From contig JACTMY010000017.1 of the NCBI GenBank assembly GCA_014584395.1, positions 166,012-230,011 on the forward strand: a stretch of 64,000 nucleotides of DNA, in the 5' to 3' direction. Each line of letters begins with the position of its first letter. Position 1 is the stretch's first letter. The stretch is from Planctomycetota bacterium (GTDB lineage: Bacteria; Planctomycetota; Planctomycetia; Gemmatales; HRBIN36). Made by a program: the position numbers and the translations under genes. The notes under the pieces are model-generated. The model saw only the letters and a program-made list of their open reading frames with translations, was not told where the DNA came from and did not search any database. Shown here piece after piece: positions 22,375 through 29,876 of the stretch.

Positions 22375-23361
22375 ATGACCACAACCACCCCATCGAAGCG
22401 CCGCGTTTTGAGCGGCGTGCAACCCTCGGGCAAGCTGCATCTGGGCAACTACTTCGGCGCCATCAAGCAGCACATCGCCCTGCAAGAGCAGTTTGAGTGC
22501 TTCTTCTTCATCGCCGACTACCATTCCCTGACCACGATCCGCGACGCCAAGACCCTGCACGAGCACGTCCTCGACGTCGCCCTCGATTATCTGGCCCTGG
22601 GGCTGGATCCCCGGAAGGTCGCTTTCTTTCGCCAATGCGACATTCCCGAGGTGACGGAACTGGCCTGGATTCTTTCCACGGTCACGGGCATGGGACTGCT
22701 CGAGCGGGCCCACTCTTACAAGGACAAGCTGGCTCGGGGGATCGCTCCCAGCGTCGGCCTGTTCACCTATCCCGTCCTCATGGCCGCGGATATTTTGATC
22801 TACCGCTCCCACCTCGTCCCCGTCGGCCAGGATCAGGTGCAGCACATCGAGATGACCCGCGACATGGCCGGCCATTTTCATCAAACCTACGGCGTGTCGC
22901 TTTTTCCCTTGCCCGAAGCCAGGCTGAACGAAGCCGCGGTCGTCCCCGGGCTGGATGGCAAGAAGATGAGCAAATCCTATGGCAATACCATCGACCTGTT
23001 CGCCGAGGGCAAACCCCTGAAGAAGACCGTGATGAGCATCGTCACGGACAGCACGCCCCTGGAGGCGCCGAAGGACCCCGCGCAGTGCAACGTGTTCAAG
23101 CTCTATTCCCTGTTCGCCAACGCACAGGAGCAGGCGGCTCTGGCCGAGAAGTATCGGGCCGGAGGCATGGGGTATGGCACCGCCAAGACGATGCTGCTCG
23201 AGAAGATCGATGCTTACTTTGGCCCGGCGCGGGAGCGGCGGAAGGAACTGGCCAAGAACATGAATTACGTCGAGCAGGTGCTGCTCGAGGGCGCGGCCAA
23301 GGCCCGATTGGAAGCCCAGGCAACGATGACCGCCGTCCGCCAAGCCGTCGGCCTGCGGTAG
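22375..23361 (+). CDS. trpS: Tryptophan--tRNA ligase
   Basis: 'RVLSGVQPSGKLHLGNYFGAIKQ' (HIGH-like), 'GLDGKKMSKSYGNTIDL' (KMSKS). Confidence 0.98.
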   Translation: MTTTTPSKRRVLSGVQPSGKLHLGNYFGAIKQHIALQEQFECFFFIADYHSLTTIRDAKTLHEHVLDVALDYLALGLDPRKVAFFRQCDIPEVTELAWILSTVTGMGLLERAHSYKDKLARGIAPSVGLFTYPVLMAADILIYRSHLVPVGQDQVQHIEMTRDMAGHFHQTYGVSLFPLPEARLNEAAVVPGLDGKKMSKSYGNTIDLFAEGKPLKKTVMSIVTDSTPLEAPKDPAQCNVFKLYSLFANAQEQAALAEKYRAGGMGYGTAKTMLLEKIDAYFGPARERRKELAKNMNYVEQVLLEGAAKARLEAQATMTAVRQAVGLR

Positions 23362-23379: not shown

Positions 23380-23616
23380 TCACTCCCTCGCCACCACCGT
23401 GTCGTACAGGCCGTAATGGGTCAGCCCCGGATGGCTGTCGATGCCGGTATAGCGCAGCGAGGCGTCCTCGTAGCGGCGAAACGCGAACACGGCCTGGTTC
23501 ATCTGCTCGGTGTTGAACACCTTGAGCCGCACGAGCAGGTGGAAGGTGTAGGTTGAGGTCCACCTGTCGTACGGTTTATTCCGCCTTGAGGGAGTTCTTG
23601 TGAACCTTGTTGGCAC
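23380..23616 (-). pseudogene. Short fragment of an unidentified protein (probable C-terminal remnant)
   Basis: 78-aa ORF with protein-like composition 'TFHLLVRLKVFNTEQMNQAVFAFRRYEDASLRYTGIDSHPGLTHYGLYDTVVARE', no clear start of its own, next to other debris. Confidence 0.35.
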
Positions 23617-23689: not shown

Positions 23690-24271
23690 TCAAGCGAACT
23701 GGGATATGATAGATTCAAGCTCCCGATAGCTTTCCTCGGTCAGTAATGGCCGGGCGTCTCTCAGGAGCCGGTCGATGTCGAGCTTGCCCTTCAGGGCCAT
23801 GAGCATGGCTTTGATGTCGCCGATGTCCTTGGGCCGGTCAAAGACTTTTTTGAACACGATCAAGTCTTCGGGGGCGTGAATACGGATCGCGCGGCCCTCC
23901 AGATCGCGCTTGGGGCTGCGGTCAAGAACCTGGAAATGAAAAGGGTGCCAGGGAAGGAACAGTTCGGTTCGAACGCCTCGGCAGGCGAACGCGGCCAAAT
24001 GGCCTTTGCCGCGAAAGTCCGCTAACACGGCTTCCAGGTCCAGCGGGTGCGGTTCGGGGCGCAAATGCTGGCAGCCGGCAGAGGCGAATTCATTCACAAG
24101 TTCGGGGATTTTGGTGTCCGGGACCAGCGCCAAGACATCGACGTCTTGCGTCAACCGCGGTGGGGCATAATAGTTGTAAGCGATGGCGCCGCCATAGGAA
24201 CGGCGCAGCCCAAGCCGTTCGAACACCTCCTCGAGCCAATGGATGACGTCGATCAGTCCGGAAAGGTTCAT
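23690..24271 (-). CDS. Nucleotidyltransferase-fold protein (AbiEii/DUF6036-like)
   Basis: Start re-assigned to MNLSGLIDVIHWLEEVFERLG. Motif 'SYGGAIAYNYYAPPRLTQDVDVLAL' (GG...DxD type) and 'APEDLIVFKKVFDRPKDIGDI'. Confidence 0.75.
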   Translation of the reverse strand: MNLSGLIDVIHWLEEVFERLGLRRSYGGAIAYNYYAPPRLTQDVDVLALVPDTKIPELVNEFASAGCQHLRPEPHPLDLEAVLADFRGKGHLAAFACRGVRTELFLPWHPFHFQVLDRSPKRDLEGRAIRIHAPEDLIVFKKVFDRPKDIGDIKAMLMALKGKLDIDRLLRDARPLLTEESYRELESIISQFA

Positions 24272-24498
24272 TCGAGTCTTTCGCAAAGTGCGATATAACG
24301 CTGGCGGCCCGGTTCTTCGAGATGCCGGCGAATCTCCTCGTCGCGACTCTGTTCTTCGGCGGATTTCGAGTTGTGTATGGCATCCGCGGTACGGAGCAGA
24401 TCGCGCAGGATGCGGATCCGGTCGGCATCCGTTAGGCCGGCGGCGAACGCCACCTCGGCTGCAATCCCTTCCCGCTCTTTTCGTTCGCGCTCGCTCAT
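24268..24498 (-). CDS. Small charged protein overlapping the NTase start by 4 nt (putative partner/antitoxin)
   Basis: 76-aa ORF MSERERKEREGIAAEVAFAAGLTDADRIRILRDLLRTADAIHNSKSAEEQSRDEEIRRHLEEPGRQRYIALCERLE; ATGA overlap with the downstream NTase. Confidence 0.6.
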   Translation of the reverse strand: MSERERKEREGIAAEVAFAAGLTDADRIRILRDLLRTADAIHNSKSAEEQSRDEEIRRHLEEPGRQRYIALCERLE

Positions 24499-24640
24499 TC
24501 TGACATCCTAGCAGACACTGCCGTTGTGGAGTACCGTTGGCATGCTTCATCATCGAGTGGATAGGGACGCGTGTCCAACATCCGGTTGGCGAACTCCGGC
24601 GGCGTGAAGACCTCGTCGTTGGCCTGGCGAGTCGAGCCCC
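24495..24640 (-). pseudogene. Remnant of a restriction-modification type DNA methylase
   Basis: Minus-strand translation ...RGSTRQANDEVFTPPEFANRMLDTRPYPLDDEACQRYSTTAVSARMSE*. In-frame stop just upstream, no own start; stop overlaps the ATG of the 76-aa ORF. Confidence 0.4.
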
Positions 24641-25034: not shown

Positions 25035-26288
25035 TCATCGGCCCGCCGTCGGCAGCGTCACCGCCAGCAACTCCTGCCCATCCCGCAGGAACAATTGGCC
25101 CTGGGCCAGCGCGGGGTGCGCCCAGGTGTTGCGACACACCTTGCCCCGGCAGAGTTCACGGTATTCCTTCGGGTCGGGCTGAATGAGCACCAGGTCGCCG
25201 GTCTCCTCGAGCATGAGCAGATGTTCCCGAGTCCGCATCAAGGTGGCATGATAGGTACCCACCTTGCGTTTCGTCCACAGCACCTGGCCGGTGGCGGGGT
25301 CCACGCAGTGCAGGTTCGCGGACGCCAGGGGAGGCAAGCTGCCGGTGACGACGTAGAGGTGTTGATTAAACCCGACGGGCGTCCCGAAATAGCAGGAGAG
25401 AGCGGGATTCTTCCAGCTCACCTTCGGCTCCCAGGCCGCATCCCCTTTGGGAGCGGCAATGTCAATGGCGAGCATGCCCGCCGTCACGGAGCTGATGAAA
25501 AGGCGATTGGCGAACCAAACCGGCGTGCTCGAGCTTTCGTTGAGCCGATCCTTGAAGGGAACAAACCACAGCGACTTGAGGGAGCGGGGCTCAAAGCCAT
25601 GCAGCCCGGCGGCGGTGAGGAGGAGGATTTGTTTGCCGGCCCCATCGAGCGACCAGGCGACGGGGGAGGAGTAGGAAGCGGCGTCATCGCCTGTTTGCCG
25701 AGTGATCCGGCCGGTCTGGGGATCGAGAGCGACCAGGCAGCAGCCCGCGCCGCCGACCATGACGATCAGTTGGCCATCGACCATGAGGGGCGACGTGGAG
25801 ATGCCGAAGAAGAGATTCTTGGCTTGGAGTTGGGCGAGGAGATCGGTTTGCCAGAAGCGATGACCCGAATGGGCGTCCCAGGCGGTTACGAGTCCGGTGA
25901 CGCCGAGCGTGTAGAGCCGGCCGTCGTGCCACAGCGGGGTGGAGCGCGGCCCATTGCCGAATTGATTGACGAAGGGAGGGCGGTCATAGCTTTGCCGCCA
26001 CCGTTCGGTGCCGGTCTGGGCATCGAGGCACAGGACTTCCTCTTTTTCGGCGTCGCGGATTTTGTAGTGAAGGAAGACCTTGCCATCGGCCGCGATCGGT
26101 CCGCCATGGCCTTCCCCGACGGGGACGCGCCAGGCCACGGTCAGCGGTTCGGACCAAGGCTTAAGGGAAACGGGAGCGTGATTGTCGCGCTTCGGCCCAA
26201 GCCAGCCGGGCCAGTCCCCGCCCTGACTTAAACCGCAGAGACCCAAGATCATGCCGCCGCTCAGGACCCAGCGCATCATGGCTATCAC
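25035..26288 (-). CDS. Secreted PQQ-like beta-propeller repeat protein
   Basis: Signal peptide; repeats such as 'LCLDAQTGTERWRQSY', 'TAWDAHSGHRFWQTDL', 'VALDPQTGRITRQTG', 'CVDPATGQVLWTKR'. Confidence 0.9.
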   Translation of the reverse strand: MIAMMRWVLSGGMILGLCGLSQGGDWPGWLGPKRDNHAPVSLKPWSEPLTVAWRVPVGEGHGGPIAADGKVFLHYKIRDAEKEEVLCLDAQTGTERWRQSYDRPPFVNQFGNGPRSTPLWHDGRLYTLGVTGLVTAWDAHSGHRFWQTDLLAQLQAKNLFFGISTSPLMVDGQLIVMVGGAGCCLVALDPQTGRITRQTGDDAASYSSPVAWSLDGAGKQILLLTAAGLHGFEPRSLKSLWFVPFKDRLNESSSTPVWFANRLFISSVTAGMLAIDIAAPKGDAAWEPKVSWKNPALSCYFGTPVGFNQHLYVVTGSLPPLASANLHCVDPATGQVLWTKRKVGTYHATLMRTREHLLMLEETGDLVLIQPDPKEYRELCRGKVCRNTWAHPALAQGQLFLRDGQELLAVTLPTAGR

Positions 26289-26944
26289 CTCAGCACTTTG
26301 AGCCTATCGTTGATCGCCTGCAAGTCGAAGTGGTCTGGATTGAAGGAGGCGCCCATCAAGGATTTGATATGGCGGTATTGCTCGTGCTTCTTGTCTTTGA
26401 TCACGTCAAGCCAGTGGTAATAGCCGAAGATGCCGCCGGAGTCCTCGGGCGGTCCGGCGCGTTCGCCCTCCAGGCACCAAAAGCGCGGCTCCCCCGGCTT
26501 GGCGGGTTGGATGCTCTCGACGAGGACGTCGTGGATCCAGTCATCGCCAAAGTCATAAATGTAGGCGAACGTTTGGCCGGGTTTCTTGACGACGTCTTTC
26601 AGAACGACCCAAAACTCATCGATGGCATCGTCCAGTTCGAATTCACGCTGGCTGTACAGTTGCTTGTCGATCAGAAAGCCATGCAGATGGCAGTCGGACC
26701 AATCGAAGAGCGACTGCATGACGAAATGGAGGTCATACAGGCGCACATCCGCGGGCACCAGGACGCGCCGCCAGATGGGCGGCTTGGAATTCCTGATCGT
26801 CACCTTGAGTTGATACAGTTGGCCCGGCGCATCAGCCTGGCGTTTCACGGGTGCCTTGGCCGGGGCTTTCTTGCTTCGACCCTTGGACGGGGTCGAAGAG
26901 GAAGCGGGAGCAGTCTTTGCTGGCTTTTCTTTCTTGGGCGGCAT
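26285..26944 (-). CDS. pRiA4b ORF-3 family protein
   Basis: 'YQLKVTIRNSKPPIWRRVLVPADVRLYDLHFVMQSLFDWSDCHLHGFLI', 'YIYDFGDDWIHDVLVE'. Confidence 0.9.
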   Translation of the reverse strand: MPPKKEKPAKTAPASSSTPSKGRSKKAPAKAPVKRQADAPGQLYQLKVTIRNSKPPIWRRVLVPADVRLYDLHFVMQSLFDWSDCHLHGFLIDKQLYSQREFELDDAIDEFWVVLKDVVKKPGQTFAYIYDFGDDWIHDVLVESIQPAKPGEPRFWCLEGERAGPPEDSGGIFGYYHWLDVIKDKKHEQYRHIKSLMGASFNPDHFDLQAINDRLKVLR

Positions 26945-26989: not shown

Positions 26990-28639
26990 TTATAGGCTGG
27001 GGGCCGATTCGGTGAGGGAGGGAGCACGAAGACAGACCAATTGCCCAAGGGAAGTTTGCCTTTGCAGGAAATGCCACAGCTCGACCAGGTCGGGCGGATC
27101 ATAACCATCCAAACACAAGACGATGGTGCCGCGGCCCCAGCAGGCTTGCTCGCGGCCCAAATCTTTCCAGGCGGCGCGGGACATCGGCAAGGCGGCGCAT
27201 GAAGCCTGAGGATACAGCCAGGCGGGCAGGGACGATTGCCGAGCCTCTTCGGCCAGGACGGGGCCAAGCCGGCGGGCCAGGGACTGCATCCAGGCGCACC
27301 GCACGCTCTCCCGCTCGGTCCGGGGCACGCCTTGCAGGTCCAGCCAGCGCTCCACCCCGGCCAGGGAAAGTTGGACGTGGGCGCGGTCGATGAGGAACGC
27401 GGGCCGATCCGCGCAAGGAACGCGCCGCAGCCATTCCCGCTTGCACGGACCCGCGCTCAAGGCCAAGCGCACGAGGCTAAGGACCTTGCCCTGGAAGGCC
27501 GCTTCGCTGAGCGGCCGCTGATGCCGTTCCCAGAGGCGATCGAGCCGCAGACCGACGTGCTGCAGCAACGTGGATGAGCGCCGATCCACGCCGTCAGCCA
27601 GGGGGATAGGCTGGCGGGGTCGTTCGAAGATCATCCGCAGGGGCATGCCCTGGATGGCCCACCGCGCTAGCGTCATCCACTCGCTCGGCACCACGCGGTC
27701 ATCGTTCGCCTCCGAACCCGCGATGTGCCAGGCGATTTGCAAATAGGGCCAGGTCTGGGGATGCTCCGCGGCGGCGTGCAGCACGATCTGCCGTAAATGA
27801 TGCCGTTCGTCGTCAAACAACAGCCGCTGGGTGGCCCTTTGGAACAGCGGACCGCGGGCCGGTTCCGCCCAATGCGGCGGCATCCCCACGTTCAAGTGCA
27901 GGATGATCTGCAGCCCCGTGGCGTGGGCAGCCCAGGTCAACTCCTCCAACCAAGCCTGCGCCGTCTGCGGCGTATGCCCCGCCAGCAACAAATCTTCCTC
28001 CACGGCGTCCAGGATCACGGTTTGGCCCACGTAGCCGCGCAAGGTCTGCAGCCACTCGAGCGCCCCGCAGCCCGGCACCAGCCGCGTCGCATGGCGGATC
28101 AGTTCAGCCGGAGACGTCAAGTCATGCAGCTCCAAAAGTTCTTCCTGATGAGCGGCTCGGAGATGCCGGCTGAAGACTTGCTCCAAGGCGAACCGCCGCA
28201 CCGCTTGCGGATGCTGCTGCCTGAGGGTGGACCAAGCGGGAGGGCCGGCGTCGGCCATGGCGATGGGAAACCAGGCTCCGGAGGGCGGGGTTCCGTTAGG
28301 CCCAGCAGGGCTGCCTTGAGCCGAGCCGCACCGCTTGGCCGCAGACCCGCGGCCGACTTCCAAGGCCAGGTTCGCTTGCCCCAATTCGCGGAGCACGTGC
28401 TGCACCCAGCCCATGAACTGCGGCGTTGTCAGCGGTTGATCGAGGTCCTGTTCGCGGAGAAAGTGGAGGATGCCGTCGGTGAGTTCGCGGGCCAGGAAAG
28501 CGTCGGGCTGGCCCAGACGCTCCATGGCCAGGAAGAGCGTTTGCGTGACCCGATCCGGATCGAATGGGACAAGCTGCCCGTCCCGCTTGCGGATAAACGT
28601 CGGCCAGGAATGGCGCATGCCCCGATCCATCGGTGCCAT
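26990..28639 (-). CDS. ATP-cone protein, degenerate class III ribonucleotide reductase-like
   Basis: 'FIRKRDGQLVPFDPDRVTQTLFLAMERLGQPDAFLARELTDGIL' ATP-cone; 'VFSRHLRAAHQEELLELHDLTSP' resembles NrdD N-terminal region; no glycyl-radical motif seen. Start uncertain (28639, 28630 or 28618). Confidence 0.65.
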   Translation of the reverse strand: MAPMDRGMRHSWPTFIRKRDGQLVPFDPDRVTQTLFLAMERLGQPDAFLARELTDGILHFLREQDLDQPLTTPQFMGWVQHVLRELGQANLALEVGRGSAAKRCGSAQGSPAGPNGTPPSGAWFPIAMADAGPPAWSTLRQQHPQAVRRFALEQVFSRHLRAAHQEELLELHDLTSPAELIRHATRLVPGCGALEWLQTLRGYVGQTVILDAVEEDLLLAGHTPQTAQAWLEELTWAAHATGLQIILHLNVGMPPHWAEPARGPLFQRATQRLLFDDERHHLRQIVLHAAAEHPQTWPYLQIAWHIAGSEANDDRVVPSEWMTLARWAIQGMPLRMIFERPRQPIPLADGVDRRSSTLLQHVGLRLDRLWERHQRPLSEAAFQGKVLSLVRLALSAGPCKREWLRRVPCADRPAFLIDRAHVQLSLAGVERWLDLQGVPRTERESVRCAWMQSLARRLGPVLAEEARQSSLPAWLYPQASCAALPMSRAAWKDLGREQACWGRGTIVLCLDGYDPPDLVELWHFLQRQTSLGQLVCLRAPSLTESAPSL

Positions 28640-28643
28640 TATC

Positions 28644-29876
28644 CTACAAAAATTTCGTCCAGTCGATGGGTTGCAGGCGGTCGCAGCGGTCGGAGGCGGC
28701 AGGCCGGCGGGGGAGATGCCGCAAGACTTCAACGTACTTCTGGGCGGCGCCCGTGTTGAAGACGACGACCCGCTCGCGCGGCTGAATCGCGCCTTGCCGC
28801 CGCAACTCATGCAAAACATCGAAGCAGATGGCCGCTTCGGGGCAGAGACTAATTCCCTCCGTCTCGGCGACCCGCTGCATCCATTCGCCGATGCGGCTCT
28901 CTCGTCCGCGCTGCGCCGAACCGCCGCTGCCGCGCACGACGTCCAGCATCATGAAATCCCCGATCGCACTGGGCACCCGCAAGCCGCTGGCGGCGGTGGC
29001 GGCGTCGGGCCAGGGTTCGGCAAACCGTTTCCCTTCCTCAAACGCCCGCACCATGGGGGCGCAGCCGTCGCTTTGACACAGGATCATTCTTGGACGGTGC
29101 GTTGCCTTGAGCCAACCGAGTTGGGCCAGCTCTTCAAAGGCCTTCGCCATGCCGATCAAGCCGGTGCCGCCGCCCGCGGGATAGAGGATGATCTCGGGCA
29201 GGTCCCAGGCGAACTGCTCGGCCAGTTCCAGCCCCATCGTTTTCTTGCCTTCCAGGCGATAAGGTTCCCGCAGCGTGGCCATGTTGAACCAGCCGACGCG
29301 GGCCGCGCCTTCGTTCACGATCGCCCCGCAATCGGAGATGAGGCCGTTCACCAGATGGACCCTGGCGCCGTAAAGACTGGCTTCAAGAACGTTGATCTCC
29401 GGCGTATCGTCGGGCATGAACACGTCCGCCCGAAGCCCCGCGCGGGCGGCATAGGCGGCGAGCGCCCCGCCGGCATTCCCCGCCGAGGGAACCGCCAGCC
29501 GCTGCACGCCCAAGTGCAAAGCCATGCTCACGGCCACGGCCATGCCGCGGCTTTTGAAGCTGCCCGTGGGCTGCGAGCTTTCATCCTTGATCCATAGTTG
29601 CTGCAAGCCCAGGTCCCGAGCGAGCCGCGGACAATCCACCAGGGGAGACAGGCCTTCGCCCAAGGAGACGACCCGCGCATCCTTGGGCAGCGGCAACAGT
29701 TCTCGATAACGCCAAAGGTCGGGCGGGCGCTCGCGGAGTTGTTCCGGCTTCAGGGAGCGGCCGATGGCGGCGAGGTCATAGCGGACCCATAACGGACGTC
29801 CCTTATGCAACGTGTGAATCAACCCCGGTGCGAACCGCGTGCCGTCGATGGCGCTTTCCAAATGGCTGACGTGCAT
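28644..29876 (-). CDS. thrC: Threonine synthase
   Basis: 'LWIKDESSQPTGSFKSRGMAVAVSMAL' PLP-lysine; 'IILYPAGGGTGLIGMAKAFEEL'. Confidence 0.95.
   Translation of the reverse strand: MHVSHLESAIDGTRFAPGLIHTLHKGRPLWVRYDLAAIGRSLKPEQLRERPPDLWRYRELLPLPKDARVVSLGEGLSPLVDCPRLARDLGLQQLWIKDESSQPTGSFKSRGMAVAVSMALHLGVQRLAVPSAGNAGGALAAYAARAGLRADVFMPDDTPEINVLEASLYGARVHLVNGLISDCGAIVNEGAARVGWFNMATLREPYRLEGKKTMGLELAEQFAWDLPEIILYPAGGGTGLIGMAKAFEELAQLGWLKATHRPRMILCQSDGCAPMVRAFEEGKRFAEPWPDAATAASGLRVPSAIGDFMMLDVVRGSGGSAQRGRESRIGEWMQRVAETEGISLCPEAAICFDVLHELRRQGAIQPRERVVVFNTGAAQKYVEVLRHLPRRPAASDRCDRLQPIDWTKFL

What the first reader, a model, noticed from the sequence alone, without database searches (positions are those of the whole stretch)
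23690..24498. Translationally coupled two-gene NTase module, candidate toxin-antitoxin-like pair
A 76-aa highly charged protein (24268-24498) overlaps by 4 nt (ATGA) an approximately 193-aa protein with 'GGAIAYNYYAPPRLTQDVDVL', the G(G)...DxD layout of minimal nucleotidyltransferases (AbiEii/DUF6036/MenT-like). Small upstream partner plus NTase in a tRNA-adjacent islet matches type II/IV TA architecture. The partner has no family I recognise, so the pairing may be undescribed.
Basis: partly seen in the sequence, partly recalled or inferred. Interest (0 to 1): 0.62.

Follow-up and report, generated by a model that had tools for sequence, protein, structure and literature searches.

The report
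MenT-like toxin with tiny antitoxin
Two overlapping genes most likely form a bacterial self-poisoning switch: an enzyme resembling the tuberculosis toxin MenT1, which blocks protein synthesis by altering tRNA ends, and a very small neighbour that keeps it harmless; it is a divergent version of a known kind, and related pairs turn out to be common.

Summary
On the minus strand a 76-aa ORF (24268-24498) overlaps by ATGA a 193-aa nucleotidyltransferase (23690-24271).

The NTase is a divergent relative of MenT1 (Rv0078A). Its clade profile matches MenT1 over most of its length (E=3e-5). A 95.9-pLDDT model has MenT1 as its five best PDB folds (best E=2e-10). All four MenT1 catalytic residues are conserved (T41, D43, K141, D152).

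The pair is a real unit. Nine further partner loci were found; each carries the NTase or its remnant immediately downstream. Four are intact with a 4-nt overlap, including one in a Verrucomicrobia MAG. In five the NTase is broken while the partner ORF stays open, as expected for toxin loss.

The partner matches no Pfam family above noise. It is related to some of the 63-95-aa ORFs found upstream of distant NTase relatives (28 of 28 checked).

Best explanation: a MenAT1-like toxin-antitoxin pair. Two departures are a glutamate at the third metal-binding position and a partner with no detectable sequence link to MenA1. Toxicity, tRNA target and antitoxicity are inferred, not shown.

The parts
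23690..24271 (-). P0001, 193-aa MenT1-like nucleotidyltransferase, candidate toxin; T41-x-D43-x-D45, E103, K141, R146, D152
   Evidence: MenT1 best by profile and by fold; catalytic residues invariant in 51 homologues
24268..24498 (-). P0002, 76-aa charged helical protein, candidate antitoxin; conserved core LTDADRIRILRDLLRTADAI
   Evidence: conserved upstream of the NTase in nine further loci
24268..24271 (-). ATGA overlap of partner stop and NTase start, consistent with translational coupling
   Evidence: the same ATGA overlap in all four intact relatives (L034, L036, L037, L041)
24505..24510 (-). TAGGAT, -10-like hexamer ending 6 nt before the partner start codon; possible leaderless promoter (tentative)
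   Evidence: TANNAT at the same spacing (6-7 nt) in window, L035, L036, L037, L041; absent in L034. L035 and L041 are near-copies, so not five independent cases

Best explanation
The two genes are a MenAT1-like toxin-antitoxin module. Shown by computation: P0001 has the MenT fold and the MenT catalytic set (T41-x-D43-x-D45, a third carboxylate E103, K141, D152), and P0002 is its constant, co-diverging partner, encoded just ahead of it in an overlapping frame. Inferred: free P0001 transfers nucleotides onto tRNA 3' ends so that they can no longer be charged, which stops translation and growth. Inferred: P0002 binds P0001 through the helix around LTDADRIRILRDLLRTADAI and blocks the active site, possibly also promoting phosphorylation of T41 (equivalent to MenT1 T39). 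Making the antitoxin first, with the toxin translationally coupled to it, keeps the toxin neutralised until the antitoxin is lost. The module moves between genomes as a bare two-gene unit.
For: MenT1 is the best solved structure by family profile (E=1.3e-18), by own-clade profile (E=3e-5) and by fold (top five hits, best E=2.1e-10; model pLDDT 95.9). Catalytic residues invariant in 51 homologues. A partner-only profile finds eight loci in six genomes, each with the NTase or its remnant next door, plus the Verrucomicrobia MAG. Five of the nine have a broken NTase and an open partner; the reverse search found no subfamily NTase without partner. All 28 readable homologues have a 63-95 aa upstream ORF. 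The P0002 HMM ranks those partners first among 2148 ORFs. NTase and partner divergence correlate (Mantel rho 0.63). Purifying selection on both genes.
Against: No experiment. Sequence identity to MenT1 is only about 15% in the structural alignment, and TM-scores are 0.61-0.69 with rmsd above 5 A, so it is a distant match. The third carboxylate is Glu, not Asp. P0002 has no detectable sequence link to MenA1. The gene-loss bias rests on few MAG loci, the partners were found by searching for partners, and the NTase is the larger target.
Confidence: 0.78

Rival explanations
1. P0001 is an NTase toxin, but its substrate is not the tRNA 3' end (another RNA, a protein or a small molecule), and P0002 is a steric inhibitor from an antitoxin family unrelated to MenA1.
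For: Clade-wide D-to-E change at the third metal ligand; distant match to MenT1; partner family unlinked to MenA1. Minimal NTases include antibiotic-modifying enzymes: ANT(2'') and LnuA come below MenT1 in the fold search.
Against: All catalytic residues shown to matter in MenT1 are kept, and CCA-adding enzymes are also among the fold hits.
Confidence: 0.13
2. Roles reversed, as in HEPN-MNT (type VII): P0002 is the toxin and P0001 the NTase antitoxin that modifies it.
For: Gene order and an NTase beside a small helical protein; P0002 has a chance R36-x5-H42.
Against: The H is not conserved in the family and 76 aa is short for a HEPN domain. In five loci the partner persists with the NTase broken or gone, which a toxin could not easily do. 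The NTase matches MenT1, not MNT.
Confidence: 0.05
3. Not a toxin-antitoxin system: a housekeeping or small-molecule nucleotidyltransferase with a small accessory subunit.
For: Minimal NTases include antibiotic-modifying enzymes; the fold search finds ANT(2'') and LnuA below MenT1. No toxicity has been measured.
Against: Patchy distribution (five of the six same-family genomes listed lack the NTase), movement as a bare two-gene unit with unrelated flanks, frequent decay of the enzyme with the partner retained, and extremely divergent partners.
Confidence: 0.04

Closest known systems
MenAT1 (Rv0078B-Rv0078A) of Mycobacterium tuberculosis; PDB 8AN4, 8AN5, 8RR5
   Same: Antitoxin gene upstream and very small (68 against 76 aa); toxin about 195 aa (197 against 193); same NTase fold; T39/D41/D43/K137/D152 correspond to T41/D43/D45/K141/D152
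   Different: About 15% identity; Glu instead of Asp as third acidic residue; P0002 family not detectably homologous to MenA1
AbiE (AbiEi-AbiEii), type IV toxin-antitoxin; one canonical pair is in the same genome (L079)
   Same: AbiEii/DUF1814 superfamily NTase next to its antitoxin, in a short-overlap operon
   Different: AbiEii is larger (311 aa in L079) and AbiEi is a ~200-aa winged-helix protein; here the partner is 76 aa with no DNA-binding domain recognised
DUF6036 / DUF2204 'nucleotidyltransferase of unknown function' (Pfam)
   Same: 25 of 29 homologues match DUF6036, 24 AbiEii and 17 DUF2204
   Different: P0001 itself is below both cut-offs; Pfam gives no partner or function
HEPN-MNT toxin-antitoxin modules (type VII)
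   Same: Two-gene unit of a minimal NTase and a small helical protein
   Different: Roles opposite to the gene-loss evidence here; no conserved HEPN motif; NTase of MenT type

Membership tests
MenT nucleotidyltransferase toxins (MenT1 type) | MenT/AbiEii (DUF1814) NTase fold | tested here: met
   Family profile vs MenT1 E=1.3e-18; fold search top five hits MenT1, best E=2.1e-10
MenT nucleotidyltransferase toxins (MenT1 type) | Catalytic residues T/S39, D41, K137, D152 (MenT1 numbering) | tested here: met
   T41, D43, K141, D152 invariant in 51 sequences and aligned to MenT1
MenT nucleotidyltransferase toxins (MenT1 type) | Third acidic residue Asp, as in MenT1 and most homologues | tested here: not met
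   Glu (E103) in the window and clade; not known to be essential to the definition
MenT nucleotidyltransferase toxins (MenT1 type) | Transfers nucleotides to tRNA 3' ends and inhibits growth | not testable with these tools
   Needs expression and tRNA sequencing
MenAT1 system | Antitoxin of about 70 aa encoded immediately upstream | tested here: met
   76 aa, 4-nt overlap; conserved in L034, L036, L037, L041
MenAT1 system | Antitoxin homologous to MenA1 | tested here: inconclusive
   P0002 and its clade give no MenA1 match; a different partner type in homologues does weakly (E=0.01) but does not link to P0002
MenAT1 system | Asymmetric binding of one antitoxin to two toxins and T39 phosphorylation | not testable with these tools
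   The equivalent Thr (T41) is present and invariant
Toxin-antitoxin module | Strict two-gene linkage, with toxin loss tolerated but antitoxin kept | tested here: met
   Nine partner loci, five with broken NTase; no subfamily NTase without partner found; small numbers
Toxin-antitoxin module | Toxicity of one product and neutralisation by the other | not testable with these tools
   Needs expression in a laboratory strain
AbiE type IV | Winged-helix AbiEi antitoxin partner | tested here: not met
   P0002 is 76 aa with no Pfam match; compare the true AbiEi in L079
HEPN-MNT type VII | HEPN R-x4-6-H motif conserved in the partner | tested here: not met
   H42 is found only in the window sequence

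The most novel reading that the evidence does not exclude
P0002 founds an antitoxin family independent of MenA1, and the surrounding clade (NTases with Glu as third metal ligand and very diverse small upstream partners), together with much of DUF6036/DUF2204, is a large unrecognised class of tiny-antitoxin NTase modules with its own inhibition mode and possibly its own RNA target.
Probability: 0.3. Interest if true: 0.55.

Novelty: new variant of a known kind. Interest (0 to 1): 0.4.

Why it matters
DUF6036 and DUF2204 are labelled 'nucleotidyltransferase of unknown function', and the full-text search found no held open-access paper that mentions DUF6036. Every homologue checked here has a tiny upstream partner, and the group's nearest solved structure is MenT1. 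That gives a testable function to many unannotated gene pairs. It also suggests that MenA1-like tiny antitoxins, of which a published survey listed 21 (15 upstream of a menT-like gene; PMC10435456), are the visible corner of a much more varied group. The loci with an open partner and a broken NTase are natural evidence on which gene is the toxin.

Tried and rejected
P0001 alone against the PDB gave nothing real, and the five-sequence subfamily profile did not reach MenT1; broader profiles were needed.

Pfam, NCBIfam and PADLOC scans of P0001 and P0002 gave no assignment above cut-off.

The first structure prediction, with five sequences, was poor (pLDDT 62) and was not used.

The kinesin-light-chain/TPR hits of the A4 partner profile come from summed weak repeats and were discarded.

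Profile comparisons A8 vs A2 and A6 vs A2 share members and were discarded; independent sets were compared instead.

Searches in phages, plasmids and viral contigs found no close relative.

Comparison with an empty site failed because gene order around trpS and the PQQ gene is not conserved in relatives.

HEPN-MNT was considered because of R36-x5-H42 in P0002, and rejected.

The count of 71 of 71 loci with an adjacent open segment was not used as evidence: it includes re-fetched copies, and open frames are common in GC-rich DNA.

Full report
What is there. On the minus strand a 76-aa ORF (P0002, 24268-24498) is followed by a 193-aa ORF (P0001, 23690-24271), sharing ATGA. A tryptophanyl-tRNA synthetase-like gene lies on the far side (22375-23361, +) and a tRNA-Ser(TGA) about 370 nt upstream of P0002. 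No direct repeats or integrase were seen. The NTase frame is open further upstream (a 287-aa ORF), but homologues begin at M1, 24271.

The NTase. P0001 alone is nearly unannotatable: DUF2204 and DUF6036 just below their cut-offs, nothing convincing in NCBIfam or PADLOC. Distant relatives (23-40% identity) are common: 52 of 199 genomes searched, the window's own included, carry at least one. A profile of 29 sequences hits MenT1 as best solved structure (E=1.3e-18). A profile restricted to the window's own clade still does (E=3e-5). A structure model from 51 sequences has pLDDT 95.9, and its five best PDB matches are all MenT1 chains (best E=2.1e-10). The match is distant: about 15% identity, TM-scores 0.61-0.69. 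G28, R39, T41, D43, D45, K141, R146 and D152 are invariant. In the alignments to MenT1 these cover T39, D41, D43, K137 and D152; alanine substitution of D41, K137 or D152 abolished MenT1 toxicity, while T39A remained toxic (PMC10435456). One difference is constant: the third acidic residue is Glu (E103) in the window and its four intact close homologues, and in at least 90% of the wider clade, where most of the family and MenT1 have Asp.

The partner. P0002 has no Pfam assignment. The scan of one genome per species with P0001 found one close relative (71% identity), in a MAG labelled Verrucomicrobia, with a 60%-identical partner and the same ATGA overlap. A profile made only from these two partners was then run on 392 genomes of the window's phylum. 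It found eight loci in six further genomes. In every one the NTase or its remnant follows at the same place. Three are intact (L036, L037, L041; 67-73% identity, 4-nt overlap). Five are broken: L035 keeps only about the first 14 residues, L038 is interrupted after about 15, L039 ends at about 72, L040 retains only a few recognisable codons, and L042 has lost about residues 42-147, which include D43, D45, E103 and K141. The partner frame stays open in all. The reverse search with the NTase profile in the same genomes found no subfamily NTase without the partner. The bias is modest evidence: few loci, MAG contigs, and the NTase is the larger target.

A general architecture. All 28 NTase homologues of the first set that could be read have a 63-95-aa ORF on the same strand directly upstream; 27 overlap the NTase and one is a single base away (start codons were chosen by eye). 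These partners are extremely diverse. An HMM of the P0002 subfamily nevertheless ranks them first among 2148 other ORFs of the loci (9 of the top 10, p=3e-13). Profile comparisons without shared members link P0002's subfamily to the partners of its sister clade (E=1e-8, probability 96%) and more weakly to the common 'KFPS' type (E=6e-5, 66%). Partner and NTase divergence correlate across 40 pairs (Mantel rho 0.63, p about 0.0005). A further partner type weakly matches MenA1 itself (8an5_C, E=0.01), but P0002's family does not. So the pair is MenAT1-like in architecture and toxin, while homology of its antitoxin to MenA1 is not shown.

Selection and movement. Both genes change mostly at third codon positions. 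Nucleotide similarity between the window and related loci stops close to the ends of the module. Five of the six same-family genomes listed lack any NTase homologue. The module therefore seems to travel as a bare two-gene unit. The window's phylum is not named by the tools; gene content suggests Planctomycetota (my inference, not tested), which would make the Verrucomicrobia locus a case of transfer between phyla.

How it probably works. By analogy with MenAT1 (PMC10435456, PMC11375011): free P0001 adds nucleotides to tRNA 3' ends and stops translation. P0002, made first from the same message, binds through its conserved helix (LTDADRIRILRDLLRTADAI) and covers the active site; in MenAT1 the antitoxin's N-terminal helix is also enough to trigger phosphorylation of T39 (T41 here). 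None of this was measured here. In window, L035, L036, L037 and L041, but not L034, a TANNAT hexamer ends 6-7 nt before the partner's start codon. This would fit a leaderless transcript starting at the antitoxin; it is a tentative point.

Verdict. It is a divergent MenAT1-like toxin-antitoxin pair with an antitoxin family not catalogued in Pfam, part of a broad and mostly unannotated set of NTase modules with tiny partners.

Noticed in passing
L079 (own genome, contig C17): 788-1390 and 1387-2322, +: A canonical AbiE type IV pair (AbiEi winged-helix antitoxin plus AbiEii NTase, 4-nt overlap) in the same genome.
   Followed up: partly
L043 (G376, contig C56): two copies about 4 kb apart (L041 and L035): One intact module and, on the same contig, a second copy with intact partner and an NTase cut after about residue 14: an orphan antitoxin beside its functional relative.
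   Followed up: partly
window 24499-24510 (-) and upstream of the partners in L035, L036, L037, L041: A TANNAT hexamer ends 6-7 nt before the partner start codon, suggesting a leaderless antitoxin-first transcript.
   Followed up: partly
window 26990-28819, -: 609-aa protein whose only Pfam match is a borderline ATP-cone near its N-terminus (residues 75-149, just under the cut-off); no ribonucleotide reductase domain detected.
   Followed up: no
window 23380-23616, -: 78-aa ORF between trpS and the module without Pfam match; may be a gene remnant.
   Followed up: no
window 26285-26944, -: Plasmid pRiA4b ORF-3-like protein (PF07929), a family often linked to mobile elements.
   Followed up: no
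L099 (Herpetosiphon aurantiacus plasmid pHAU01): 1469-1702 and 1740-2588, +: A distant NTase relative (26% identity to L041) annotated next to a 77-aa XRE regulator instead of a P0002-like partner, suggesting partner replacement.
   Followed up: no
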